From: Ahrensia sp. R2A130 | GTDB taxonomy: Bacteria > Pseudomonadota > Alphaproteobacteria > Rhizobiales > Rhizobiaceae | DNA length: 64,000 nt | Direction of reading: 5' to 3' | Assembly (NCBI RefSeq): GCF_000179775.1 | Contig: NZ_AEEB01000016.1 | Span: 1 to 64,000 of the forward strand | Translations under genes and position numbers: made by a program | Shown: positions 5,826-51,951 of the stretch, one piece after another | Numbering within the stretch: the stretch's first letter is position 1 | How the letters are laid out: every line of letters starts with the position of its first letter | Notes under the pieces: model-generated | Databases searched by the model: none | What the model was told of the DNA's origin: nothing | The model's input: the letters and a program-made list of their open reading frames with translations, nothing else

Positions 5826-5840
5826 GCTAAACTACGTCCT

Positions 5841-5876
5841 CAATTGTCATCCCCACGCAAACGGGGATGACAATTG
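5841..5876. terminator. Perfect 14-bp stem-loop between convergent gpmA and metZ
   Basis: CAATTGTCATCCCC (5841-5854) and its exact reverse complement (5863-5876) flank an 8-base loop, halfway between the convergent ends of gpmA and metZ. No long T-run follows on either strand, so it is either a bidirectional terminator-like hairpin or a copy of a dispersed palindromic repeat. The core GTCATCCCC/GGGGATGAC resembles repeats often seen in alphaproteobacterial intergenic DNA. Confidence 0.6.
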
Positions 5877-5885
5877 ATAGCCGAG

Positions 5886-17703: not shown

Positions 17704-18462
17704 ATGACGGATCAATTCGCCAGCTACCCTAGCCTCAAAGACAAATCCGTCCTCATCACCGGCGGTGCATCCGGCATCGGCGAATTGATGGTTCGTGCTT
17801 TTGCTGAACAAGGTGCCAAAGTCGGCTTTCTCGATTTTGATGCTGATGGCGCAACAAAGCTTGCTGCTGAACTTGGCGACGCGGTGGAATGCGGCATCTG
17901 CGATCTGCGCGACATCGACGCCATGCGCGCCAGCATCTCAGAATTGCGCGAAAAGCTTGGTGGCTTCGATGTCCTCGTGAACAACGCGGCCCGCGATGAC
18001 CGCCACGATTGGCGCGACGTGACACCGGAATATTGGGACGAGCGCCAGCACACCAATATGCGGCACCAGTTCTTCGCCATTCAGGCCGTGGCTGACGATA
18101 TGATTGCGGCAGGCGGCGGCTCCATCATCAATATGGGGTCGAACTCCTGGTGGGAAAAAGGCACCAACATGCCCGCTTACACCGCAGCTAAAAGCGCGGT
18201 TCACGGCCTCACTCGCTCCATGGCGAACGAACTCGGCGGCCACCGCATCCGCGTAAATTGCGTGGTGCCGGGCTGGATAATGACCGACCGCCAAAAGAAT
18301 CTTTGGGTGACCGAAGAAAGCATCGAGGCCCACCGCGACAACCAGTGTCTGCCAGACCTCATCGAGCCGGTTTATGTTGCCCGCATGGTGCTGTTTCTCG
18401 CATCTGACGATGCAAAGATGTGCACTGCGGCAAACTTCCTTGTGGAAGCGGGCTCTATCTAG
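17704..18462 (+). CDS. SDR-family sugar dehydrogenase (D-xylose 1-dehydrogenase-like)
   Basis: Classical short-chain dehydrogenase/reductase, 252 residues. NAD(P) motif TGGASGIG (19-26), NNAA (93-96), catalytic Ser in NMGSNSW (S146 or S148) and Y159-x3-K163. The stretches YPSLKDKSVLITGG and NNAARDDRHDWRDVTPEYWDER look strongly like Caulobacter-type xylose dehydrogenase (XylB), which oxidises aldoses at C1 to lactones. With the CUT1 sugar importer close by, an aldose or cyclic polyol is the likely substrate. It converges on the TetR gene, sharing a 4-bp CTAG stop overlap. Confidence 0.88.
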   Translation: MTDQFASYPSLKDKSVLITGGASGIGELMVRAFAEQGAKVGFLDFDADGATKLAAELGDAVECGICDLRDIDAMRASISELREKLGGFDVLVNNAARDDRHDWRDVTPEYWDERQHTNMRHQFFAIQAVADDMIAAGGGSIINMGSNSWWEKGTNMPAYTAAKSAVHGLTRSMANELGGHRIRVNCVVPGWIMTDRQKNLWVTEESIEAHRDNQCLPDLIEPVYVARMVLFLASDDAKMCTAANFLVEAGSI

Positions 18463-19046
18463 CTTTCCGCGCTGAACGCTTGCATCAGCCGCCATGCGCG
18501 ATTGGCGCGTTCGTAAATCATGGCCCGTGACACTTCCGGTATTGCGCCGGTGGCCCGTCTGATCTGAAGATCGCCGACCAGCAGCGCCACGAATAATTCC
18601 GCATGTTCCAGTCCCACTTCTGTGTTCGGTAGATGGGTCCGCAACAGATCCATCATCACAGGAAACACCCGCTCGCGTCCCGATTTTGCTAGCGCAGGCC
18701 CCAACTCGCCGGTTTCGTCTGCATCCGCAGCCGCTGCGCGGTTCAGAGCGATGGCGCGGTCGCCGGTCAGCATGGTGAGCAGGTGTTGGCCGAAGGCGAC
18801 CATCGGATGCATTGTGATTGTCTCGTTGAGTTCGGGCATGTCGGCCACGACGCTGTCGGCATTCCGCTCGATAAGGGCAGTGAACAAACCCTGCTTCGTG
18901 CCGTACCAGCGATATAGCGTTTGGTTGGAGGCTTTTGCGGCCTTGGCGACCGACAGCATCGAAGTTCGACGATAGCCCTTTTCCGCCAGCACCGCATATG
19001 CCGCGGCTTCAATGGTTTTGCGCCTTTCGTCATCACCGCTTGTCAT
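18459..19046 (-). CDS. TetR-family transcriptional regulator
   Basis: A 195-residue TetR/AcrR regulator. The N-terminal helix-turn-helix covers about residues 15-60 (YAVLAEKGYRRTSMLSVAKA...TLYRWYGTKQGLF), followed by a helical ligand-binding domain. The ATG at 19046 has AAGAGG upstream; the longer frame reaching 19100 crosses the operator region and is rejected. It is divergent from the membrane protein gene at 19130, with palindromic sequences between them, so it probably represses itself and that gene. Confidence 0.9.
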   Translation of the reverse strand: MTSGDDERRKTIEAAAYAVLAEKGYRRTSMLSVAKAAKASNQTLYRWYGTKQGLFTALIERNADSVVADMPELNETITMHPMVAFGQHLLTMLTGDRAIALNRAAAADADETGELGPALAKSGRERVFPVMMDLLRTHLPNTEVGLEHAELFVALLVGDLQIRRATGAIPEVSRAMIYERANRAWRLMQAFSAES

Positions 19047-19063
19047 GGAAACCTCTTGACCAA

Positions 19064-19111
19064 TAAGTGTACATGTATGCACCAATATTAGTGTACACAC
19101 AAATACACTTA
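19064..19111. promoter_or_regulatory. Candidate TetR operator region
   Basis: Between divergent starts lie an inverted pair TAAGTGTA (19064-19071) and TACACTTA (19104-19111), a perfect GTGTACAC palindrome (19091-19098) and a TACATGTA palindrome (19070-19077). Repeated GTGTAC cores on both sides suggest two operator sites for the adjacent TetR protein. Confidence 0.65.
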
Positions 19112-20799: not shown

Positions 20800-21018
20800 C
20801 GTGCCGCCAAACCTAATCGTGTTTCGCCCAAAGCTAGGCCATCACTTTTGCGCGGAAGCAAGCGTCGTTTCTTCATCTTGCACCGCCTTTCAAATGGTGA
20901 TTGTTTTGGCGTGGACGCAAACCGGGTGAAGGCTCGCATTTGCACATCTATCGGGCGGATAGCTTTCATGACCGTTGGTTTCGGTCTGGCTCTGCGCCCA
21001 CCAACGGGAGAAGATCTT

Positions 21019-25409: not shown

Positions 25410-25907
25410 CTAGACGTCGCGGTTCTCGTCCAGAATCACGCGCAGTTTTCGCAATTCGTCGAGCGTTGGTTCCAGATCGAGATCGCTCACTTTGCCGGAT
25501 AAAGCAGTAACCGCAGGCGCAAGTGCGGCAATGGCATCGCCACAAAACGCGCGACCGGCGGGCAGCAACCGCACGATCTTGCTGCGTCCGTCTTTTGGGT
25601 CGGCCTCAAGTTCGATGAAACCGCGCTCACCCAAAACACCAAGCGAATGGGTCATCGTTCCCCGCGTCACCTGAAAAGCGTCCGCCAACATGGCCGGTGT
25701 TTCAGGAAAATCACGCTTGGAAAGGTGGTTCAAAATGCCGAAGTGCGAGGCGTGTAATCCGTCTGGCAAGCGACGGTTCAGCAAAGTGGTGGAGAGCTGT
25801 GCCAGAATGCCGATCTCATTAAACAGCTGGAACAGCAGTGGCGGTGCGCCGCCTTCAGCCGGTGGCGCGGCGATAGGGGGCTCCGACTTTGACACTTTTT
25901 TCGCCAA
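25410..25907 (-). CDS. MarR-family transcriptional regulator
   Basis: A 165-residue winged-helix regulator. The wHTH spans about residues 40-115 (HFGILNHLSKRD...AFQVTRGTMTHSLGVLGERGFI...DPKDGRSKIVRL). It starts with TTG at 25907, supported by GGAGGCG at good spacing, and overlaps the 3' end of the upstream nitroreductase-like gene by 53 bp in another frame. Both are read from the 27054 operator region, so the pair is probably autoregulated. Confidence 0.88.
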   Translation of the reverse strand: MAKKVSKSEPPIAAPPAEGGAPPLLFQLFNEIGILAQLSTTLLNRRLPDGLHASHFGILNHLSKRDFPETPAMLADAFQVTRGTMTHSLGVLGERGFIELEADPKDGRSKIVRLLPAGRAFCGDAIAALAPAVTALSGKVSDLDLEPTLDELRKLRVILDENRDV

Positions 25908-27036
25908 TCACTTTCGCCTCCAACGGCCAGCGCGGGCTGGCGTTTACCGCTTCTCCATAGCCCAAGCGGATCAACATTTGCACCGTGCCACCCTCGGCCG
26001 CCCACATGTCGTGCACTTGTTTGTAGAGCTGTGCCATTTCCGGATATTCCTGCAAAGCCTGGCTGTGAGGCTGCATGTCGATGCCTTCTGCCGTGCAAGC
26101 CAGATGAACCCGCACCCAATCTCGCCCAGCGCTGATCTGGTCTGAACGGCTGTTGCCGGACGACACCATCCACATGTGCGCCATCGCGGTGGCCGGTGGG
26201 CCTAAAATCGCATCACGTCCCTGTTCAAAGCCGGTCTGGCCGGGCAGTAGCATGTCGTCGCGCGACAGCATCCCTGCAGCAGAAAGCCCCTCCATCAACG
26301 GTCCTGTCAGGTCGATACCATCGGGATTGGCGATCACTTCTTTCGCACCGATCCGCATCACGTCGATGCTTTCCTTGTGAGTGCGGGCGGTCTCCATTTC
26401 GATTGTGGATGCTGCGATGGTCAACTCCCGCAACTTCGCAACTTCAGTAGGGTTATTCGTCCACCCGATGCGGTTTTTTCGTGCAGCGGCTGCGATTCTG
26501 GTCAGTGTCGAACCATTCACATCGCGCGTCGTGTCATAGACCTCTTTATTGGACCTGCGGTCGAGCACATAGGCGAAAAGCGGGTCCAGCTTTATTGATG
26601 CATCCGACGTGAAACGCGCGGTCGCAACGGGTCGTTCATCAAGCGCATCAGCATTGCTACCGTGTGAAAACAGATCGAGATCAACTCGGAAACCGTCCTG
26701 CGCCGCAGCCATCACCAGTAGTTCAAGAAAGCAGCCCAAACCGATGGTGATCTGCCGGTTGTTCGGGTCGGTATGCGGCAGCAAGCGGTTCGCATCGGCA
26801 TAAAGCGTCACCTCATCCGGTACGCTCAAATCGACCTTCCACGGCTGTTGATTGTGCGGATTTGGGGCGAGGATCGCATAGGATAGCGCCTTGCGCCGTG
26901 GCTCGGTGTAGTCAGAACCCGCCGCACGCCACGGGGCGGAGGCCTGAGCCGGGCTTCGCATGACGCGAACAGTTCCTGCGCCAGCTGCCAACACCACACC
27001 ACCGCCAACTATCGCTAAAAACCTGCGTCTGTTCAT
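25855..27036 (-). CDS. Tat-exported nitroreductase-family (Acg-like) oxidoreductase
   Basis: A 393-residue FMN-binding-type protein of the nitroreductase superfamily. It opens with a twin-arginine signal (NRRRFLAIVGGG) and hydrophobic core, pointing to periplasmic export with a bound cofactor. ILAPNPHNQQPWKV (about 55-68) matches the N-terminal nitroreductase FMN segment; the later halves fit the Acg-like double-module form. Natural substrate unknown. GGAGCG precedes the ATG at 27036. It is divergent from the large catabolic operon and upstream of marR. Confidence 0.8.
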   Translation of the reverse strand: MNRRRFLAIVGGGVVLAAGAGTVRVMRSPAQASAPWRAAGSDYTEPRRKALSYAILAPNPHNQQPWKVDLSVPDEVTLYADANRLLPHTDPNNRQITIGLGCFLELLVMAAAQDGFRVDLDLFSHGSNADALDERPVATARFTSDASIKLDPLFAYVLDRRSNKEVYDTTRDVNGSTLTRIAAAARKNRIGWTNNPTEVAKLRELTIAASTIEMETARTHKESIDVMRIGAKEVIANPDGIDLTGPLMEGLSAAGMLSRDDMLLPGQTGFEQGRDAILGPPATAMAHMWMVSSGNSRSDQISAGRDWVRVHLACTAEGIDMQPHSQALQEYPEMAQLYKQVHDMWAAEGGTVQMLIRLGYGEAVNASPRWPLEAKVIGEKSVKVGAPYRRATG

Positions 27037-27053
27037 GATCGCTCCATAAGTTA

Positions 27054-27079
27054 GATATCAAACTATATAGTTTGATATC
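27054..27079. promoter_or_regulatory. Perfect 26-bp palindrome, probable MarR operator
   Basis: GATATCAAACTAT (27054-27066) is followed at once by its exact reverse complement (27067-27079). It lies 18 bp upstream of the nitroreductase-marR start and 89 bp upstream of the first gene of the nine-gene plus-strand operon. AT-rich perfect palindromes of this kind are typical MarR sites, and a minus-strand -10-like TATAGT lies inside it. Confidence 0.8.
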
Positions 27080-27167
27080 GAGCAATAATTGCATTGTCAA
27101 ACGCCTTGCCATCGCTTGCATGCCGCGCCAGTGAAGATGCAGCACCGCACCAGCAGGAATAAGCGAC

Positions 27168-27713
27168 ATGAAGGGTTCGAGACCGGAGCAGGCCAAGCTC
27201 ACCAAGAACAACGACGCATCGAAAGTGGAAGAAACCCGCCGCGTTATCGAAGGCATGGTGGATGGTCTCAACGACCACCGCATCTGTGACATTGGCGAAT
27301 TCTTCGCCAAGGATTTCCGATGGATGGGCAATGCCGGCTGCGGTTACAAAGAAGGGCTGGAGGAATTCCAACAAGGCTGGCAGCAACCATTTCAAGACGC
27401 CTTTTCCGACAAGGTCTGCATAGATGAAGGCCGCTTGTACGATGGCGAATGGGCCGCCGCCTTCGGTCGGCAGGAAGCCACGCATTCCGGTGAGTTCATG
27501 GGCATCGCACCCACCGGCAAGAAGGTCGTGATCCGCTATATGGACTTCTGGAAAATTGCAGATGGCCGCATCACCGACAACTGGGTGATGGTCGATTTTC
27601 CATCCGTCATGCGCCAGCTGGGCGTCGACGCATTCAATGGCCATGGTTGGGAAAAGAAGACAGATAACCCCGTAGCTCATCTGCGCCCGGACCAACTGCC
27701 GTGGCACCGATAA
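27168..27713 (+). CDS. Single-domain SnoaL/NTF2-fold protein
   Basis: A 181-residue SnoaL-like protein. Its core carries FRWMGNAGCGYKEGLEEFQQ...PF (50-75), a variant of the WYGP-GIG-RG-HQ-PF motif of the longer paralogues, and IRYMDFWKIADGRITDNW then MVDFPSVMRQLGVD at the end. A good AGGAA precedes the ATG. It is the first gene after the palindromic operator and heads the catabolic operon. Probable small-molecule lyase, isomerase or cyclase; no reaction can be assigned. Confidence 0.8.
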   Translation: MKGSRPEQAKLTKNNDASKVEETRRVIEGMVDGLNDHRICDIGEFFAKDFRWMGNAGCGYKEGLEEFQQGWQQPFQDAFSDKVCIDEGRLYDGEWAAAFGRQEATHSGEFMGIAPTGKKVVIRYMDFWKIADGRITDNWVMVDFPSVMRQLGVDAFNGHGWEKKTDNPVAHLRPDQLPWHR

Positions 27714-27770
27714 AGCCTTCGATAACTGCAGTGCCGAACGGGTCTTGCACGGGGCAGTGACCGCGATAGT

Positions 27771-27805
27771 GTCTGGCCTACACGCTGAATCGCCCGAGGC
27801 CAGAC
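27771..27805 (+). promoter_or_regulatory. Hairpin covering the ribosome-binding site of the HisD-like gene
   Basis: GTCTGGCC (27771-27778) pairs perfectly with GGCCAGAC (27798-27805), ending one base before the ATG at 27807. The 3' arm takes in half of the GAGG site (27796-27799). It could dampen translation or act as a partial terminator or processing site within the operon. Confidence 0.5.
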
Positions 27806-27806
27806 C

Positions 27807-29129
27807 ATGACAATTCGCCACCTGAAAACCGCACGTTCCGAAGAAGACCGCCGTGATGATGACGCCAAGGTGCGTGCATCCGTCGAGACGATTTTGAAGG
27901 ACATCGAAACCCGTGGCGATGCGGCGGTGCGCGAACTATCTGAGAAATTCGACAATTACTCGCCAGAAAATTTCCGTCTGTCGGACAGCGAAATCGAAGC
28001 AGCCATGCAGAAAGTTTCGACGCGCGATATGGATGATATCCGCTTCGCGCAGAAGCAAATCCGCACATTCGCGCAAGCCCAGCGCGCGTCGATGACGGAT
28101 ATCGAAATCGAGACGATGCCAGGCGTCATTCTTGGCCACAAGAATATCCCCGTACAGTCGGTCGGCTGCTACGTGCCCGGCGGGAAATTTCCCATGGTCG
28201 CCTCAGCGCACATGTCGGTGTTGACCGCCAATGTTGCAGGCGTTCCGCGTATCGTGGCGTCCGCACCACCGCAGAACGGTGAGCCGCACCCTGCCATTGT
28301 CGCTGCCATGAAGATGGGCGGCGCGCACGAAATTTACGTCATGGGTGGCATTCAGGCTGTCGGTTCCATGGCCATCGGCACTGAAACCATCGAGCCGGTT
28401 CACATGTTGGTCGGCCCCGGTAACGCTTTCGTCGCAGAAGCCAAGCGTCAGCTTTTTGGCCGCGTCGGTATCGACCTGTTCGCTGGCCCGACGGAAACCA
28501 TGGTGATCGCAGACGAGACAGTCGATGCTGAAATCTGCGCCACGGACCTGCTGGGGCAGGCGGAACATGGCTACAACTCGCCCGCCGTGCTGCTGACCAA
28601 TTCTGAGAAACTCGCCCGCGAAACGATGGACGAAATCACCCGCCTGCTGGAAATTCTACCCACCCGCGACACCGCATCGAAAAGCTGGGAAGACTATGGC
28701 GAGATCATCGTCTGCGACACCTATGACGAGATGCTTCAGGTCGCCGATGATATCGCTTCAGAGCATGTGCAGGTGATGACGGATCGCGACGACTGGCTCC
28801 TCGATAACATGACGAGCTACGGCGCACTCTTCCTTGGCCCACGCACCAACGTTGCCAACGGCGACAAGGTGATCGGTACAAACCACACGTTGCCGACGAA
28901 GAAGGCCGGTCGCTACACCGGCGGCCTGTGGGTGGGCAAATTCCTGAAGACGCATTCTTATCAGAAAATTACCACCGATGAGGCTGCGACCGAAATCGGC
29001 GAGTACGGGTCGCGCCTGTGCATGTTGGAAGGTTTTGTTGGGCACGCCGAACAGTGCAACGTCCGTGTGCGCCGTTATGGTGGTCGTAACGTGCCTTATG
29101 GTGCCAAGGCGGAGCCGGTGAACAGATGA
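27807..29129 (+). CDS. Histidinol-dehydrogenase-family alcohol dehydrogenase
   Basis: Zinc- and NAD-dependent dehydrogenase of the HisD fold, 440 residues, able in this family to oxidise a primary alcohol through the aldehyde to an acid. The catalytic set is intact: Gln/His in GQAEHG (Q251, H254), Glu/His in ASEHVQV (E319, H320), Asp in [10 protein letters not shown] (D353) and His in VGHAEQ (H413). The setting in a catabolic operon, without other his genes, and the GCYVPGG segment point to the HpsN-like (sulfopropanediol dehydrogenase) branch rather than histidine synthesis. The substrate is unknown. Confidence 0.85.
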
Positions 29130-29157
29130 GTGCGGAACCCCTTACAGACGCAGCGGA

Positions 29158-30201
29158 ATGAGCGCCGTCGATGCGGCTCGGCAGCTTTTAGAGCCGCTTA
29201 CGGCTGCGCTCTACGACTTCGAAACCGACGCTACCAAAGATGCGATCCTCGCCACCTTCGCAGATGATGCGCTGCTACGGCTTTGCCACCCGCTGACCCA
29301 CGGCCATGATGGTGTGACCGAAGGCGGGCAGGGCTATTGGAACCGCGCGATTAAGCCTCTCGCTGCAGCCATGCCGGATATGGAACGGCGCGTCTGGATT
29401 TCTATCGCGGGCGAGGCTGAAGGTGGCGATATTTGGGTCGGCCACGCGGGCCACTATGTTGTGACGTTCAATCAACCCTTCCTCGATATTCCGCCAACCG
29501 GCCATCTCGCCCATATGCGTTTCCATGAATTTTTTCGCGTGGTGGATGGCAAGGTCGTCGAAACCCAGATGATCTGGGACATTCCCGAATTGATGATGCA
29601 GGCATGCTGCTGGCCCATGTCGCCGAGCCTTGGTCGTGACTGGTGCGTACCGGCTCCGGCAACGCAGGATGGTATCGCTACCAGTCCCTATGATGCGGTG
29701 AAGGGTGGGCAGACATGCGCTTTCATCGTGGAAATGCTGGAAGCGATGGTGCGCCATCCGTCGAAAGGTGGACCCGAAGTTATGGAATTGGAGCGCTTTT
29801 GGTCGCCCCGCATGAATTGGTACGGCCCCACCGGCATCGGTACCGGTCGTGGTATCGAGGGCTTCCGTGAGTGGCATCAGATACCATTCCTCGCCGCGAT
29901 GCCGGACCGTGGGCAGAAGCCTGGCGACACCGCTCACCATTTTTTTGGCGAGGGCGATTATGCCGCCGTCACCGGCTGGCCCAACATGGCGCAGACCTTG
30001 AGTGATGATGGCTGGCTGGGCATCGCACCGGCAGGTCAGTGGCTCGAACTTCGCTCGCTCGATTTCTGGAGGCTGGAGGGCGAGGGTGAGGCCCGGCGCA
30101 TCCGCGAAAACTGGGTGATGGTCGATCTGCTGGACATGTACCGCCAGCTGAACGTCGACGTGCTGGCAAGAATGCGCCAACTCACTAGCGCACGACGCTG
30201 A
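29158..30201 (+). CDS. Tandem SnoaL/NTF2-fold protein
   Basis: A 347-residue two-domain SnoaL-like protein (about 1-165 and 185-347), paralogous over its whole length to the one encoded at 19657-20799. The C-domain has WYGPTGIGTGRG...WHQIPF (221-244), LRSLDFWRLEG and ENWVMVDLLDMYRQLNVDV. The ATG at 29158 overlaps the TGA of an 11-codon frame (29126-29161) that itself begins on the HisD-like stop, so translation is probably coupled. The role is unknown; hydration, cyclisation or elimination on the pathway intermediate is plausible. Confidence 0.8.
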   Translation: MSAVDAARQLLEPLTAALYDFETDATKDAILATFADDALLRLCHPLTHGHDGVTEGGQGYWNRAIKPLAAAMPDMERRVWISIAGEAEGGDIWVGHAGHYVVTFNQPFLDIPPTGHLAHMRFHEFFRVVDGKVVETQMIWDIPELMMQACCWPMSPSLGRDWCVPAPATQDGIATSPYDAVKGGQTCAFIVEMLEAMVRHPSKGGPEVMELERFWSPRMNWYGPTGIGTGRGIEGFREWHQIPFLAAMPDRGQKPGDTAHHFFGEGDYAAVTGWPNMAQTLSDDGWLGIAPAGQWLELRSLDFWRLEGEGEARRIRENWVMVDLLDMYRQLNVDVLARMRQLTSARR

Positions 30202-30223
30202 TCGCGCGGGGAGGCGCATAAAT

Positions 30224-30901
30224 ATGGCAACCACACGCAAAGCGGGCAGCTACACAGGGCTGGAAGAATTGGGCCGCGTGCGCCTGTCGCGGCATTTCTA
30301 CATGCGAAATTTCCTCTATTCGGAAATCGCCAATTTTCATGCCCGCCAGAACATGCCTGACGATCCGAAGCTTGCCATCGCGGCAGGCAGTGCGTTTTCC
30401 CAAAATCTACTCGACCCGCTGGTGGACACGTTCGGCCCTATCGAAATTCGTTCCGGTTTCCGCTCCTGCGACCTGAATCATTTTGGTGCAACGGAAGTGA
30501 CCCCGCAAAAATGCTCCGCTAACCCCGCCAATTACGCAGGCCATATCTGGGACAGGCGCGATGAAAATGGCCATATGGGTGCAACAGTAACCATCGTCAT
30601 TCCGTGGTTTGCCGACCAGTTCAATGCGGGCCGCGACTGGCGCGATCTCGCGTGGTGGATGAACGATCATCTCGACCATGCAGGGCTGTATTTCTTCCCG
30701 AAGAATGCCGCCTTCAATTTGAGTTGGCATGAAGCGCGGGGCAAATCGATCATCTCCTACGCCAAGCCGAAAGGCACGTTGTTGAAGGAAGGCGAAACAC
30801 CTGCGGAAGACCTCGCCACCCGCCAAAAACGCTATGCAGACTTCCCGTCATTTCGTGGTATCGCCTACCCCACCACCCCCGATACTTGGCAGCCATCATG
30901 A
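30224..30901 (+). CDS. Peptidase M15-like (D-Ala-D-Ala carboxypeptidase fold) protein of unknown role
   Basis: A 225-residue soluble protein without signal peptide. IEIRSGFRS (73-81) matches the RSGYRS segment of M15/hedgehog-type zinc peptidases, GHMGATVTI (116-124) occupies the place of the SxHxxGxAxD metal motif but lacks the aspartate, and NLSWHEA (165-171) matches the terminal WH ligand. Zinc peptidase activity therefore looks doubtful. It is translationally coupled to the next SDR gene (ATGA). Its steady presence in this operon type would have to be checked. The family call is tentative. Confidence 0.6.
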   Translation: MATTRKAGSYTGLEELGRVRLSRHFYMRNFLYSEIANFHARQNMPDDPKLAIAAGSAFSQNLLDPLVDTFGPIEIRSGFRSCDLNHFGATEVTPQKCSANPANYAGHIWDRRDENGHMGATVTIVIPWFADQFNAGRDWRDLAWWMNDHLDHAGLYFFPKNAAFNLSWHEARGKSIISYAKPKGTLLKEGETPAEDLATRQKRYADFPSFRGIAYPTTPDTWQPS

Positions 30902-31665
30902 CCGCTCTTCCCCGCACGCCTTCCTTCCGTCTCGACGGAAAACGCGCGCTGGTGACAGGCGCGTCGTCCGGCATCGGATTGGGCGGCGCGATGGCGCTGG
31001 CGGAGGCCGGCGCCCATGTCGTCATGGCCGCCCGCAATCTGGAGCGCACGCAGGGCGTGGTGGATGAAGTTCGCGCTGCCGGATTTTCTGCTGAAGCCAT
31101 CGCAATGGATGTCGGTGATCTTGATGATGCCCGCGCAAAAATCGCCGAACACGGCCCTTTCGACGTGCTTTTCAACAATGCAGGCACCAACGACCCGACG
31201 CCCTATCTCGACGTGGACGAAGCCAATTACGATATGATCGCCGACTTGAATTTGAAAGCGGCATTCTTCATCGCGCAGGCTGTCGCGAAGGGCATGAAAG
31301 CTACTGATATCAAAGGCTCGATTATCCACACCTCCAGCCAGATGGGCCATGTGGGTGGCATCGATCGTTCGGTCTATTGCGGTACGAAATTCGGTATCGA
31401 AGGTGTCACCCGTGCATCGGCCATCGAGTTGGCGGAGTTCGGCATCCGCGTGAACACCATCTGCCCCACCTTCATCCGCACGCCGATGACACAGTCCACT
31501 TTCGACAACCCGGAGCGCGTGGCGTGGCTGGAAGAGAAGATCAAACTGGGCCGCGTCGGCGAAATCGAAGATATCATGGGTTCTGTGCTTTTCCTTGCAT
31601 CAGACGCATCATCTCTCATCACCGGCACGTCCATCATCATCGATGGCGGCTGGACCGCAGATTAA
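30898..31665 (+). CDS. SDR-family dehydrogenase/reductase
   Basis: Classical SDR of 255 residues. TGASSGIG (20-27), NNAG (93-96), Ser in HTSSQMG (S146 or S147) and Y160-x3-K164. Overall it resembles gluconate 5-dehydrogenase and other keto-polyol reductases. The ATG at 30898 overlaps the preceding stop. It is the second SDR of the island and differs clearly from the XylB-like one, so the two probably act at different carbons. Confidence 0.88.
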   Translation: MTALPRTPSFRLDGKRALVTGASSGIGLGGAMALAEAGAHVVMAARNLERTQGVVDEVRAAGFSAEAIAMDVGDLDDARAKIAEHGPFDVLFNNAGTNDPTPYLDVDEANYDMIADLNLKAAFFIAQAVAKGMKATDIKGSIIHTSSQMGHVGGIDRSVYCGTKFGIEGVTRASAIELAEFGIRVNTICPTFIRTPMTQSTFDNPERVAWLEEKIKLGRVGEIEDIMGSVLFLASDASSLITGTSIIIDGGWTAD

Positions 31666-31692
31666 TTCAAGATACGAAACAGGACTAAGATT

Positions 31693-32694
31693 ATGGCCAT
31701 GCAAGGCTTCTCCCAACGCTGGAAAGACTTTCCCGACTACATCATCGGGGTGACCCGCGAGATTTGGGAGCACCGCGGCGTCGGCACGCTGAACCACACC
31801 TATGCGTCGGACATTCCGGTGCGTTCACCGATGGGTATCCAACGCGGCAACCAGCAGGTCATCGCCTCCACAATGGCGACGATCAACGAGTTTCCCGATC
31901 GTGAATTGTTTGGTGAAGATGTGATCTGGTGCGGCACGCCGGAGACGCATCTGCTGTCATCCCACCGCCTCATCACCACCGCCACCCACACACGTGACGG
32001 TCAGTTCGGGCCAGCCACAGGCAAGCGTTTTACCGTCCGCGTGATTGCCGATTGCGCCGCTAAGAATGACATTATCGACGACGAATGGTTGGTGCGCGAC
32101 TATGGCGGCATCGTGCGCCAGTTGGGCATGGAGCCGAAGAGCTACGCCCAAGGGCTGATTGATATCGAAGGCGGGCCGGAAAACGCGCCGGTGCCTTATC
32201 TGCCGGAAAACGATATCGAAGGTCCGTATAATGGCACGGGCAACGATAACGAATGGGGCACCCGCTACGCCGACACACTGACCGCCATCATGGCGAAAGA
32301 ATTCCATATCATTCCAGACCGCTACGACCGCGCGATCTGCACGGAATATGCAGGTGGCGAAAGCGGCCTGTCATGGGGTGCCGTGGACGGTTTCTGGGTC
32401 GGTTTGCGCTCATCATTCCCCAATGCGGAATTCAAAATTCGCCACACGATCGGTATGGATGGCGACATGTTGCCCCCCCGCGCCGCCGTGCGTTGGTCGC
32501 TCGACGGATTGCATGAAGGCTGGGGCACGTTCGGCGAACCCACCGGCGCCCGCGTACACGTCTTCGGCATGTGTCATGCGGAATACGGCCCGTTCCTGAA
32601 CGCCGATACGCAACAACCCGCCACCATCCGACGCGAAACCGCGCTCTATGATGAGATCGCGATCTGGAAGCAGATCCTGATGCAGGCGGGCTGA
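31693..32694 (+). CDS. Tandem SnoaL/NTF2-fold protein, divergent
   Basis: A 333-residue protein with two SnoaL-like halves (about 15-155 and 180-333). The first ends with DDEWLVRDYGGIVRQLGME (129-147), close to the C-terminal signature of its paralogues. The second contains ESGLSWGAVDGFW and MLPPRAAVRWSLDGLHEGWG. The WYGP-GIG-RG motif is not kept, so this is the most diverged of the four SnoaL-type proteins in the island. Function unknown. It lies 27 bp after the SDR gene. Confidence 0.75.
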   Translation: MAMQGFSQRWKDFPDYIIGVTREIWEHRGVGTLNHTYASDIPVRSPMGIQRGNQQVIASTMATINEFPDRELFGEDVIWCGTPETHLLSSHRLITTATHTRDGQFGPATGKRFTVRVIADCAAKNDIIDDEWLVRDYGGIVRQLGMEPKSYAQGLIDIEGGPENAPVPYLPENDIEGPYNGTGNDNEWGTRYADTLTAIMAKEFHIIPDRYDRAICTEYAGGESGLSWGAVDGFWVGLRSSFPNAEFKIRHTIGMDGDMLPPRAAVRWSLDGLHEGWGTFGEPTGARVHVFGMCHAEYGPFLNADTQQPATIRRETALYDEIAIWKQILMQAG

Positions 32695-32697
32695 CCC

Positions 32698-33327
32698 ATG
32701 GACAGCTTCGCCGACCTCATGTTCACCGATGCGGTGGCCGTTCATCAAAAAGCGGACGGTTCCTACGACCGCTTCCAGAAGATGTACGCCAATCGTTTCA
32801 AGGGTGATCTTGGTGAAGACGAACGCACATTCATTGAGAGCCGGACATCATTTTATATAGCCAGCCACAACGCTGACGGTTGGCCCTATGTGCAACACCG
32901 CGGCGGACCGGTTGGCTTCCTGAAGGTCATCGGGCCCACGCGCTTGGGCTTTGCCGATTACGCAGGAAACCACCAGTTCGTAACGCAGGGAAACTTGGAC
33001 GATGACAATCGCGTGTCGCTGTTCATGATGGATTACCCACGCAAGGCTCGCCTCAAAATGCTGGGCCACGCAACGATGATCGCAGCCAGTGATGACACAG
33101 GACTAGCGGCTCAACTGGCCACTGAAGATGGGCCTGAACCGGAACGCCTGGTCACCATCGACATCGCTGCGATGGATTGGAACTGCCCAAAGTATATCGA
33201 GCCGCGCTTCACCGAAGCTGAAATCGCCGCCATGCTCGGTCCACGCATCAAGGCGTTGGAAGAGCGCAACGTGGAGTTGGAAGCCGAACTCGCACACTAT
33301 CGAAAACAATCAGGATCGACCCAATGA
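32698..33327 (+). CDS. Pyridoxamine 5'-phosphate oxidase-family flavin-binding protein
   Basis: A 209-residue protein of the PNPOx-like FMN split-barrel fold, with FIESRTSFYIASHNADGWPY, QHRGGPVGFLKV and NHQFVTQGN segments typical of the broad family, not the vitamin B6 enzyme itself. The last 30 residues (IKALEERNVELEAELAHY) are a predicted coiled coil and may mediate oligomerisation. It could be a flavin reductase or an FMN/F420/haem-binding oxidoreductase. It begins 3 bp after the preceding stop and overlaps the cupin gene. Confidence 0.8.
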   Translation: MDSFADLMFTDAVAVHQKADGSYDRFQKMYANRFKGDLGEDERTFIESRTSFYIASHNADGWPYVQHRGGPVGFLKVIGPTRLGFADYAGNHQFVTQGNLDDDNRVSLFMMDYPRKARLKMLGHATMIAASDDTGLAAQLATEDGPEPERLVTIDIAAMDWNCPKYIEPRFTEAEIAAMLGPRIKALEERNVELEAELAHYRKQSGSTQ

Positions 33328-34304
33328 CCGCCGTTATCACTGTCGCTGAAATGGAAGCCCGCATCGTTCGCTACGGCGCGTTGCAGCCCTGCAAGACCGC
33401 CTTCATCGACGCTCACACGCCGGGCAGCGATCAGAAGGAAAATTTCACGATCATCGGTGGTGGTGTGTCGGAATCACCGGATCAGCACGTTCATATCGGC
33501 ATTCCGCACGGCTTCAATATCGGCGCTGCGGGCCAGCCGCCCAAATGCCGCAACTCTATGCACAGCCACCGCACTGCTGAGTGTTTTTGGGTGCTATCGG
33601 GCCGTTGGCGTTTTTTCTGGGGTCGCCACGGCACGGCGGGCGAAGTGTTTTTGGAGCAGGGCGACATCATCAACATCCCCACCGGTATTTTCCGCGGCTT
33701 TGAAAATGTCGGCACCGACTACGCTATGGTGATGGCAATCCTTGGCGGCGATGATGCCGGCGGTGGCGTCATCTGGGCGCCGCACGTCATCGAAGACGCG
33801 CAGGCCCACGGTCTTGTTTTGGCGGAAACCGGCAAGCTCTACGATACCAAGAAGGGGCAGGCACTGCCCGATGGCGTGAAACCCATGCCGCTGCTCACCG
33901 AAGACGAATTGGCTGGCTACCCCGAAATGTCTCCGATGCAGATCGTGGGTCAGGGCGTGCGCCGATATAACGATCTCGTGGCGTTGGCGAAAGACAAGCC
34001 GGTAAAAGTAATCGGCGAACGCGGTATGATCCGTGATCGCCCGGGCTTCGACGTTGATCTCGTCACGCGCTCATCGGCAACCGAAGAAATGCACAGTCAC
34101 GACCGCGCATCGGTGTTGATGCCCATTCGTGGTCATTGGAAGTTAATCTGGAAGGGCGGTGAGGCCTTGCTCGATCCGGGCGATACCGCGTCCGTTCCGG
34201 CTGGTCTGTCGCACACCGCAGTGCCCGCCATGAGCGGTGAGGCCGCCCTTTACCACATCATCGCAACCGACGATCCCGCCGGCCCAAGCACGATGGGCCA
34301 ATAG
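33324..34304 (+). CDS. Two-domain cupin (bicupin)
   Basis: A 326-residue bicupin. The first domain has NSMHSHRTAECFWVLSG (H80, H82) and the second EEMHSHDRASVLMPIRGHW (H257, H259), both with the two histidines and acidic residue of cupin motif 1, so two metal sites are possible. Bicupins include dioxygenases, decarboxylases and sugar isomerases. The ATG overlaps the upstream stop. As the eighth gene of the operon it probably opens or rearranges a pathway intermediate. Confidence 0.82.
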   Translation: MTAVITVAEMEARIVRYGALQPCKTAFIDAHTPGSDQKENFTIIGGGVSESPDQHVHIGIPHGFNIGAAGQPPKCRNSMHSHRTAECFWVLSGRWRFFWGRHGTAGEVFLEQGDIINIPTGIFRGFENVGTDYAMVMAILGGDDAGGGVIWAPHVIEDAQAHGLVLAETGKLYDTKKGQALPDGVKPMPLLTEDELAGYPEMSPMQIVGQGVRRYNDLVALAKDKPVKVIGERGMIRDRPGFDVDLVTRSSATEEMHSHDRASVLMPIRGHWKLIWKGGEALLDPGDTASVPAGLSHTAVPAMSGEAALYHIIATDDPAGPSTMGQ

Positions 34305-34337
34305 GTTCATTCCGCGTAAAAATTGAAGGCAAATTCC

Positions 34338-35468
34338 ATGACTAAAATTCCCGTCACACATGTCGGCTCTCTGCCCCGCACCCAAAAGGTGGTCGATTTC
34401 ATTTTCGCTCGCGAAAAAGGTGAGGACTACGATCAGGCCGCCTTCGACACCGCTATGCGCGATGCCGTCGATGAAACCGTGCGCCGCCAAAAAGAGGCCG
34501 GTGTCGATATCGTCTCCGATGGCGAGACGTCGAAGATCAGCTACGCCACCTATGTAAAAGACCGCTACACCGGCTTTTCCGGCGACAGCGACCGCAACGC
34601 CCCTGCTGACCTGAAGATGTTCCCGTCCTTTCTGGAGCGCCAGAAGGACTCCGGCGGAACCCCCACCTATGCCCGCCCGCAATGCACCGGTGATGTGAAA
34701 TCGAAGGGCAACGATGATCTCGATAAGGACATTGCGAACCTCACGGGTGCGATGAAAAAGCATGGCGTCGAGCGCGGCTTCATGAACGCGGCTTCGCCCG
34801 GTGTGATCTCGTTGTTCCTGCAAAATGCCCACTACAAAACGCGCGACGCTTATCTTGCAGCGCTCGCAGACGCGATGAAGCAGGAATACGAAACCATTGT
34901 TGCCGCCGGTCTCGACATCAATCTCGATTGCCCTGATCTCGCGTTGTCTCGCCACATGCTGTTCAGCGATTTGTCGGATGCCGAGTTCCTGAAGATTGCA
35001 GACAGCCACGTGGAAGCGCTGAACTATGCGCTGTCCAACGTGCCGAAAGAGAAGGTGCGGGTGCATATCTGCTGGGGCAATTACGAAGGCCCCCACTGCT
35101 GCGATATCCCCATGGATACGGTCTTTTCCACGTTGATGAAGGTCGATGCGCGATACGTTTTGTTCGAAACATCGAACCCGCGCCATGCCCATGAGTGGAC
35201 CGTTTTCCGCGACCGCCAGAGCGAAATTCCCGACGACAAAGTGCTCGTTCCCGGGGTCGTGGACACCACGACTAACTTCATCGAACATCCCGAAGTGGTG
35301 GCTCAACGGCTTGAGCGTTTCACCAGCATTGTCGGCGCGGATCGCGTTGTTGCAGGCTCCGATTGCGGCTTTGGAACTTTTGCGGGTTACGGCGCAATCG
35401 ACCCTGAAATCGCCTATGCAAAGCTCGCGACACTGGCGGAAGGGGCTGGTCTCGCCAGCGACCGCTAA
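34338..35468 (+). CDS. MetE-core-like zinc methyl/alkyl transferase
   Basis: A 376-residue protein matching only the C-terminal catalytic half of cobalamin-independent methionine synthase (MetE), a family that also holds epoxyalkane:coenzyme M transferase. All four zinc ligands are visible: H243 and C245 in RVHICWGN, E277 in FETSNPR and C343 in GSDCGF. HVGSLPR (8-14) is the family N-terminal motif. No N-terminal MetE duplicate is present, so it is not a classical MetE. It probably moves a methyl or alkyl group to or from a thiol, perhaps demethylating the substrate. The ATG at 34338 is preferred over TTG at 34323. Confidence 0.82.
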   Translation: MTKIPVTHVGSLPRTQKVVDFIFAREKGEDYDQAAFDTAMRDAVDETVRRQKEAGVDIVSDGETSKISYATYVKDRYTGFSGDSDRNAPADLKMFPSFLERQKDSGGTPTYARPQCTGDVKSKGNDDLDKDIANLTGAMKKHGVERGFMNAASPGVISLFLQNAHYKTRDAYLAALADAMKQEYETIVAAGLDINLDCPDLALSRHMLFSDLSDAEFLKIADSHVEALNYALSNVPKEKVRVHICWGNYEGPHCCDIPMDTVFSTLMKVDARYVLFETSNPRHAHEWTVFRDRQSEIPDDKVLVPGVVDTTTNFIEHPEVVAQRLERFTSIVGADRVVAGSDCGFGTFAGYGAIDPEIAYAKLATLAEGAGLASDR

Positions 35469-50192: not shown

Positions 50193-50222
50193 AAGGGCTC
50201 GCAGCTTGCGCTGCGAGCCCTT
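50193..50222 (-). terminator. Terminator downstream of rpsA
   Basis: AAGGGCTCGCAGC (50193-50205) is the exact complement of GCTGCGAGCCCTT (50210-50222) around a TTGC loop. On the minus strand T-rich sequence (TTTGTGCTTTTAA) follows, 26 bp after the rpsA stop. Confidence 0.85.
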
Positions 50223-50247
50223 CGAATGTTTGTTCAAACAGCTAAAT

Positions 50248-51951
50248 TTAGCTGTCGCTGCCGTCGCGGTCTTTCAGGGCTGCGCCCAGAATGTCGCCCA
50301 GCGATGCACCGGAATCGGATGAACCGAACTGTGCCACGGCTTCTTTCTCTTCGGCGATTTCCAGCGCCTTGACGGAGAGGTTGGCCTTGCGCGTCTTGCG
50401 GTCGTACTGCGTGACGCGGGCATCGATCTTCTGACCGACGGAGAAACGCTCGGGGCGCTGCTCGTCGCGGTCGCGGGACAGGTCGCCACGACGGATGAAG
50501 GCTTCGATGTCGGTGTCGACGATACGGGTCTCGAGACCACCATCGGTGACTTTCATCACCTCGGTCGTAACGATTGCGTTGCGGCGGATTTCACCGGTGT
50601 CAGCGCCAGCATTGTCGGCACCATCAAGCTGTTTGATGCCGAGCGAGATGCGCTCTTTATCAACATCAACGTCGAGCACGACGGCTTTCACCATGTCGCC
50701 CTTGTTGAAGTCTTCGATGGCTTCTTCGCCGGAGCGTGACCAATCCAGATCGGAAAGGTGAACCATGCCGTCCACATCGCCGTCGAGACCGATGAACAGA
50801 CCGAATTCGGTCTTGTTCTTGACCTCGCCTTCGACAACCGTACCGGCTGGGTACTGGTCGGCGAAAGTGTCCCAGGGATTGGACAGGTTCTGCTTGAGAC
50901 CAAGCGAGATACGACGCTTGCCCGGGTCCACTTCCAGCACGATGACTTCGACTTCCTGAGAAGTCGCGACGATCTTGCCGGGATGGACGTTCTTTTTCGT
51001 CCAGGACATTTCGGACACGTGGATCAGGCCTTCGATGCCTGGTTCCAGCTCAACAAATGCACCGTAGTCGGTGATGTTGGTGATGCGGCCGTTGACCTTC
51101 GTATCGTTTGGATACTTGGCACCGATCGAATCCCATGGATCCGATTCCAGCTGCTTCATGCCCAGCGAGATGCGGTGGGTTTCCTGGTTCACACGAATGA
51201 TCTGAACCTTGACCGTTTCACCGATCTGCAGGATTTCGGTCGGGTGGTTGACGCGACGCCAAGCCATGTCGGTGACATGGAGCAGGCCGTCGATGCCGCC
51301 GAGATCAACAAATGCACCGTAATCGGTGATGTTCTTGACCACACCTTCCACGATCTGGCCCTCTTCGAGGTTCTGAACGATTTCCGAACGCTGTTCTGCG
51401 CGGGTCTCTTCCAGAATGGCGCGACGGGAAACAACGATGTTGCCGCGACGACGGTCCATTTTCAAAATCTGGAAAGGCTGCGGCGTGTTCATCAGCGGTG
51501 TGACGTCGCGCACGGGGCGGATGTCGACCTGCGAACGCGGCAGGAATGCCGTGGCACCATCCAGATCGACGGTGAAACCGCCTTTGACCTGGTTGAAGAT
51601 CTGGCCTTCGACCTTTTCTTCGGCTTCGAATTTCTTTTCGAGCTTGATCCAGCTCTCTTCACGACGGGCTTTGTCGCGCGACAGGACGGCTTCGCCCATC
51701 GCGTTTTCAACGCGCTCGAGGTAAACTTCGACGGTATCGCCGACTTTCAACGTGCTGGGCTGGCCCGGCAGGGAGAATTCTTTAAGCGCAACGCGGCCTT
51801 CGACTTTAAGACCGGCGTCGATGATCGCCATGTCTTTTTCGATGCCTGTAACGATGCCTTCGACAACGGTGCCTTCCTGAATGGATTGGGCTGCAAAGGA
51901 TTCGTCGAGGAGGGCTGCGAAGTCCTCCATGGATGGGTTCATTTCTGACAT
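50248..51951 (-). CDS. rpsA: 30S ribosomal protein S1
   Basis: Ribosomal protein S1 (567 residues) that captures mRNA on the small subunit. Six S1 RNA-binding repeats can be traced; repeats 3-5 show [21 protein letters not shown] and related [19 protein letters not shown] patterns. CAGGAG precedes the ATG at 51951. It follows cmk, the standard order, with a 274-bp gap that holds its leader and probably a promoter. Confidence 0.97.

What the first reader, a model, noticed from the sequence alone, without database searches (positions are those of the whole stretch)
27054..27079. Perfect 26-bp palindrome controlling the divergent MarR and catabolic operons
A gap-free 26-bp perfect palindrome is very unlikely by chance. 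It sits where one site could repress both the nitroreductase-marR pair and the nine-gene operon. It gives a direct handle on the inducer.
Basis: partly seen in the sequence, partly recalled or inferred. Interest (0 to 1): 0.58.

Follow-up and report, generated by a model that had tools for sequence, protein, structure and literature searches.

The report
MarR double operator in catabolic cluster
The palindrome is real and is the core of a conserved two-box switch that a repressor gene most likely uses on its own small operon; in this bacterium that operon sits inside a catabolic gene cluster whose usual repressor is missing, so it may have taken over the cluster, which is not proven.

Summary
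Confirmed: GATATCAAACTATATAGTTTGATATC at 27054-27079 is a perfect 26-bp palindrome (about 0.0013 expected per 64 kb). It is the inner part of a longer element. Before the same nitroreductase-marR pair in other, mostly alphaproteobacterial, genomes lie two 16-bp boxes, AGTTYGATATCRAACT, usually 20 bp apart, with the -10 motif CTATAT between them: 67 of 70 loci not used for the matrix score above every random window. MarR recognition-helix residues 83 and 84 vary with half-site bases 5 and 6, so this MarR most likely represses its own operon here. Control of the nine-gene operon is plausible, not shown: no good + strand promoter overlaps the site, and no second tandem copy was found in the assembly or before the importer. 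In 19 of 19 other genomes with the catabolic cluster, nitroreductase-marR is not in it and a LacI-family regulator is present; the two genomes with the pair inside the cluster lack that LacI and its operators. A regulator swap is possible. The kind of repressor is known; my paper searches did not turn up this operator or the swap.

The parts
27054..27079 (.). perfect 26-bp palindrome, holding the two inner half-sites of the double operator
27049..27064 (.). box next to nitroreductase, AGTTAGATATCAAACT, 15 of 16 to the box consensus
27069..27084 (.). far box, AGTTTGATATCGAGCA, 13 of 16; its outer half-site is eroded (TGCTCGAT on the - strand)
27063..27070 (.). CTATATAG at the operator centre; reads as the alphaproteobacterial -10 CTATAT on either strand
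27096..27101 (-). TTTGAC, -35-like; 25 bases from CTATAT here (counted on the sequence), against 17 in relative G003
25855..27036 (-). Acg/Rv3131-family FMN oxidoreductase ('nitroreductase') with a twin-arginine-like N-terminus
25410..25907 (-). MarR-family regulator; its reading frame overlaps the end of the nitroreductase frame; recognition segment QVTRGTMTHSL
27168..35468 (+). nine-gene catabolic operon (SnoaL-like, HisD-like, SnoaL-like, 225-aa ORF, SDR, SnoaL-like, PPOX, cupin, MetE-like); possible second target
27106..27121 (.). TTGCCATCGCTTGCAT, 10 of 14 to the relatives' LacI operator; possible relic or chance (25 matches of 10 or more in the 64 kb)

Best explanation
The palindrome is the core of an autoregulatory double MarR operator. 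Two 16-bp boxes 20 bp (about two helical turns) apart flank the -10 element of the nitroreductase-marR promoter. Dimers of the MarR encoded at 25410-25907 bind there and keep RNA polymerase off; an unknown small molecule releases them, and nitroreductase and MarR are made together. Shown by computation: the element, its conservation in front of this pair, the absence of a second tandem copy, and its covariation with the recognition helix. Inferred: binding, repression, release by a ligand. In this window the far box is eroded and the -35-like element lies 8 bases further off than in G003, so local strength and the number of bound dimers are uncertain. Influence on the nine-gene operon is possible and unproven.
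For: The 20-base core (up to 2 mismatches) was found in 5 of 297 family genomes (the reversed control pattern in 2 others, G214 and G344), and 5 of 5 lie in front of a nitroreductase-marR pair. A matrix from 25 loci, window left out, gave 67 of 70 other loci above the maximum of 3,850 random windows, and 65 of 70 above the maximum of 2,310 shuffles. Of the 3 misses, L118 has the element 164 bases before the start I had assigned, L132 has no upstream sequence, L137 has none. No further tandem element above 18 bits in 77 loci of up to about 16 kb. In 79 of 93 distinct operators the best or tied-best CTTGAC-CTATAT promoter has its -10 at the operator centre; 73 of 93 score 9 or more of 12. MarR residue 84 Thr goes with half-site base 6 G (237 of 256 half-sites), Ala with A (67 of 80); residue 83 Thr with base 5 C (145 of 148). 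The window's Gly83 and Thr84 fit its AGTTTGAT half-sites.
Against: No binding data. Relatedness inflates the covariation: on well-supported branches residue 84 has only 2 independent pairs, both usually agreeing (1 on a MarR tree), and residue 83 has 3, of which about 2 agree and 1 does not differ; with weak branches allowed 6 of 6 and 5 of 6 agree. Recognition-helix columns as a group are not significantly above the rest (p 0.08), and columns outside the helix (113, 67, 52) also score high. The 93 operators were chosen by score above 13. The window's own promoter is atypical (8 of 12 at best). Weak single boxes elsewhere are not excluded: 13 further sites with 2-3 mismatches in the assembly against 5 for the reversed control.
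Confidence: 0.85

Rival explanations
1. One site controls both sides: besides its own operon the MarR represses the nine-gene catabolic operon, having replaced the operon's lost LacI regulator.
For: Nitroreductase-marR sits between importer and operon in this genome and in G003; their nitroreductases are sisters (98/95) in a tree carried mainly by nitroreductase. Both genomes lack the cluster LacI (best matches 29% and 34%). All 19 other genomes compared have it (51% or more): 16 near the cluster and 3 elsewhere in the genome. LacI operators stand before cluster genes in 15 of the 16, in 8 of them within 100 bases before snoaL1 or hisD, and before none in the window or G003. G001 has snoaL1 directly after abc.
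Against: Best + strand promoter candidate 8 of 12 with a poor -35; 88 bases to the first ATG; intergenic sequence outside the operator is hardly conserved between window and G003. No tandem operator before the importer. Probably one evolutionary event, so 0 of 2 against 19 of 19 is not a count of independent cases; this assembly is 94.9% complete, so a missing LacI could lie in a gap.
Confidence: 0.43
2. The operon is transcribed only from the importer promoter by read-through, and the palindrome matters only for nitroreductase-marR.
For: In several relatives importer and operon genes follow each other closely on one strand. No terminator-like sites above chance between them here: 2 found, 2.0 expected.
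Against: A 1.6-kb antisense pair now lies between; 8 of 16 relatives with LacI near the cluster have an operator within 100 bases before snoaL1 or hisD, which suggests an internal promoter there.
Confidence: 0.37
3. Another protein binds the palindrome, for example the TetR-family regulator at 18459-19067.
For: TetR proteins also bind palindromes (recalled); the gene is in the window.
Against: The element follows the nitroreductase-marR pair across genomes and varies with the MarR recognition helix; this TetR had no match at E 1e-8 in the 26 loci examined.
Confidence: 0.05
4. The palindrome works as an RNA hairpin or terminator, or is chance.
For: A 13-base stem is possible.
Against: If the -10 lies inside the element, a transcript would lack one arm (inference); inner half-sites covary no better than others; no terminator-like site was found around it; conservation makes chance very unlikely.
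Confidence: 0.03

Closest known systems
ZitR of Lactococcus lactis on its zit promoter (PMC6372160, passages read)
   Same: MarR-superfamily repressor with two palindromic operators that overlap -35 and -10 of its own promoter
   Different: Operator sequence TTAACYRGTTAA; zinc-responsive; controls zinc uptake. Here the boxes are AGTTYGATATCRAACT, and the target is an Acg-family flavoprotein gene
MarR-family regulators in general (review PMC10458429, passages read)
   Same: Binds a palindrome, usually 16-20 bp (the review's words); gene beside its likely target
   Different: The window protein stays far below the cut-offs of the NCBIfam models it matches; its operator did not show in the searches
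YetL/YetM, HpaR, CouR: MarR repressors (names in listings; details of their pathways partly recalled)
   Same: Local repressor that could answer to a pathway metabolite
   Different: No inducer is known here and the neighbouring pathway is not identified
Acg/Rv3131 family (NF047509; literature seen as titles and abstract starts only)
   Same: Nitroreductase gene scores 252 bits against a cut-off of 199
   Different: Here with a twin-arginine-like N-terminus and a MarR partner; how usual that is in the family was not searched

Membership tests
MarR family of regulators | MarR winged-helix domain | tested here: met
   PF12802 35.7 bits, cut-off 27; PF01047 gave no hit on this contig; PDB profile search finds MarR chains, best E 1e-14
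MarR family of regulators | Palindromic operator of about 16-20 bp beside the regulator gene | tested here: met
   Two 16-bp boxes, conserved with the pair
MarR family of regulators | Dimer binds the operator and a ligand releases it | not testable with these tools
   Needs gel shift and ligand screen
ZitR-like double operator over -35 and -10 | Two boxes that cover the promoter | tested here: inconclusive
   -10 at the centre in 79 of 93 operators. Window: -10 motif at the centre but -35 displaced and far box eroded
Shared divergent operator for the nine-gene operon | A + strand promoter overlapped by the operator | tested here: not met
   Best candidate 8 of 12 with -35 CGCTCC; 0 promoter-like sites at the tool's threshold. 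Promoters of other types were not tested
Acg/Rv3131 FMN oxidoreductases (NF047509) | Score above the curated cut-off | tested here: met
   252.4 bits against 199

The most novel reading that the evidence does not exclude
A self-regulated nitroreductase-marR cassette, carrying its own double operator, moved into the middle of a LacI-controlled catabolic operon, split it, and took over: LacI and its operators were lost, and the MarR operator now stands where half of the relatives with a nearby LacI have a LacI operator, before snoaL1 or hisD. This would be a natural replacement of a regulator together with its site.
Probability: 0.42. Interest if true: 0.62.

Novelty: new member of a known kind. 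Interest (0 to 1): 0.43.

Why it matters
It turns one palindrome into a defined regulator-operator pair, found in many alphaproteobacteria, with predicted specificity residues (83, 84) that can be tested by exchange. The cluster comparison offers a before-and-after case (G001 against this genome and G003) for asking how a catabolic operon changes its regulator.

Tried and rejected
Rejected: a single-palindrome reading (the conserved unit is two boxes); extra tandem operators near the pair in relatives (0 above 18 bits in 77 loci); terminator or RNA hairpin. Not settled: in the assembly the 16-base box has, apart from the two window boxes, 13 sites with 2-3 mismatches (none with 0 or 1) against 5 for the reversed control; their contexts were not examined.

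Led nowhere: literature on this operator. Searches returned nothing; one returned 4 papers that hold 11 of its bases, in the one opened (PMC4517056, one passage) as a primer, the others judged by title; one listed 15 of 18 general papers; 68 returned 1 and 72 listed 10 of 13, unrelated by title. Solved-structure search gives general MarR chains. The pathway of the operon stays unidentified.

Limits: the 80 named loci are the best of a capped list. Gene calling for the neighbours was mechanical and picked a wrong ORF for the window itself. The tree lacked MarR columns for 5 of 17 rows, including G003, G005 and G001. Three of 24 cluster loci (L169, L197, L199) were left out of the LacI count because their contigs end early. 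Operators scoring 13 or less were left out of the 93, and identical ones were counted once. The LacI-site decay before the importer rests on one alignment of three divergent sequences.

Full report
Observation. The 26-bp perfect palindrome at 27054-27079 is there. It is the longest gap-free palindrome in the window; 0.0013 are expected by base composition. Neither the window nor the rest of the 3.73-Mb assembly (22-base core, up to 3 mismatches; assembly 94.9% complete) holds another copy.

What it belongs to. I searched the 20-base core (up to 2 mismatches) in 297 genomes of the family: 5 genomes match, and the reversed control pattern matches in 2 others. All 5 matches lie directly before a nitroreductase gene followed by a marR gene, both homologous to those in the window. 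Lining up the sequence upstream of nitroreductase in 26 loci (window included) shows that the conserved unit is two 16-bp boxes, AGTTYGATATCRAACT, with ATAT or similar between them, 20 bp start to start in 21 of 26. The window's 26-bp palindrome holds the two inner half-sites. Its outer half-site far from the gene is eroded (TGCT for AGTT).

Test on other loci. A matrix from 25 loci (window left out) was applied to the 80 named loci returned by a capped search. 77 could be scored; 74 exceed the maximum of 3,850 random windows. Of the 70 whose operator was not in the matrix, 67 exceed it, and 65 exceed the maximum of 2,310 dinucleotide shuffles. Of the 3 misses one has the element further upstream of the start I had assigned (L118), one has no upstream sequence (L132) and one has none (L137). 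Of the three unscored loci, L112 has marR without nitroreductase and without operator, and L111 and L125 have too little upstream sequence. No second tandem element above 18 bits was found in 77 of these loci, so the regulator looks local. Genes on the far side of the operator vary: 47 of 76 are singletons in an all-against-all comparison, and 48 are divergent, 28 on the same strand (mechanical gene calling).

Link to this MarR. Across 93 distinct operators the strongest association of any protein column with a half-site base is residue 84 with base 6, then residue 83 with base 5. Thr84 goes with G (237 of 256 half-sites), Ala84 with A (67 of 80), Ser84 with G (34 of 36), Thr83 with C (145 of 148), Gly83 with T (105 of 148). 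These residues are in the segment that aligns with the helix-turn-helix of solved MarR chains (that it is the recognition helix is recalled). Cautions: for residue 84 the agreement by locus is 19 of 20 and 73 of 73, but the trait changes only about 6 times on the nitroreductase tree, and only 2 independent pairs are on well-supported branches (1 on a MarR tree); for residue 83 there are 3, of which about 2 agree and 1 does not differ. With weak branches allowed, 6 of 6 and 5 of 6 agree. The helix as a whole is not significantly enriched (p 0.08), and columns outside it also score high. The window's MarR has Gly83 and Thr84, whose commonest bases are T5 and G6, and both inner half-sites of the window are AGTTTGAT.

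Promoter. The consensus CTTGAC-N17-CTATAT is given for Sinorhizobium in PMC2873474 (passages read). In 79 of 93 operators the best or tied-best match has its -10 at the operator centre. G003 scores 11 of 12 there. The window scores at most 8 of 12: TTTGAC is present, but 8 bases further from CTATAT than in G003. On the + strand the same CTATAT is available, with a poor -35 (CGCTCC). So the site can be read as promoter-blocking for nitroreductase-marR in relatives; for the window this is likely but weaker, and for the + operon it is unproven.

The catabolic cluster. A protein from the operon (cupin) was searched in 297 genomes of the order; 34 match, 20 besides the window's with E below 1e-50. 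From these, and G001, G003, G005 and the window, 24 clusters were fetched; three were left out because their contigs end early, leaving 21. In the 19 apart from the window and G003, nitroreductase-marR is not in the fetched cluster region. In several, importer and operon genes follow each other closely on one strand; in G001, whose HisD-like protein is 89% identical, abc is followed directly by snoaL1. Elsewhere nitroreductase-marR stands apart from the cluster: of 25 relatives' pair loci only G003's has cluster genes beside it; among the named loci one other, L124, has a SnoaL-like gene several kilobases away.

LacI. In 16 of 21 clusters a LacI-family gene (51% identical or more to the query from G555) lies near the cluster, and in 15 of these 16 the palindrome TTGCATNCGNATGCAA (at least 12 of 14) stands before cluster genes, in 8 within 100 bases before snoaL1 or hisD. 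G372, G407 and G081 have no LacI in the stretches fetched, but each has a 51-53% match elsewhere in its genome, and G372 and G081 have a 12-of-14 site before cluster genes. So 19 of 19 genomes without the pair in the cluster have this LacI. The window genome and G003, the only two with the pair inside, do not (best matches 29% and 34%), and show no such site before cluster genes. By simple counting that split has a chance of 1 in 210, but the two cases are probably one event: their nitroreductases are sisters (98/95).

Mechanism. Most likely MarR dimers bind the two boxes and block the nitroreductase-marR promoter; an unknown ligand lifts this. Whether the operon on the other strand is also controlled cannot be decided from sequence. 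The absence of LacI and its sites makes a take-over by MarR attractive; the lack of a recognisable + promoter, and the continuity with the importer in relatives, argue for caution.

Unexplained. The two outermost half-sites of the operator resemble each other more (z 13) than the partners inside one box do (z 6-7). I have no explanation.

Verdict. It is a member of a known kind (MarR autorepressor with a double operator, compare ZitR). Searches did not show this operator or the swap in print; only open-licence papers were searched and few were opened.

Noticed in passing
25855-27036: The Acg-family 'nitroreductase' begins with a twin-arginine-like signal (MNRRRFL...GGG); an RR pair near the N-terminus is present in 26 of 26 aligned orthologues, which suggests export to the periplasm.
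   Followed up: partly
30224-30901: A 225-aa ORF in the operon matches no Pfam or NCBIfam family and had no homologue in the 22 relatives' loci compared.
   Followed up: partly
L193:11601-12611 and related clusters: A LacI-family regulator with a clear operator TTGCATNCGNATGCAA probably governs this SnoaL/HisD/MetE-like catabolic cluster in relatives of the same order (near the cluster in 16 of 21); pathway unknown.
   Followed up: yes
20878-20893: TTGCACCGCCTTTCAA before the importer aligns with the LacI operator of G001 and may be its decayed remnant.
   Followed up: partly
5840-5877 and 50193-50255: Other strong inverted repeats: 15-base arms with an 8-base loop, and 13-base arms with a 4-base loop followed by an 18-bp palindrome.
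   Followed up: no
operators of the 93 loci (L002-L025, L033, L036, L075-L154): Outer half-sites of the double operator resemble each other more than partners inside a box do.
   Followed up: partly
own assembly, 13 sites outside the window: Weak single matches (2-3 mismatches) to the 16-base box exceed the reversed control 13 to 5; contexts not examined.
   Followed up: no
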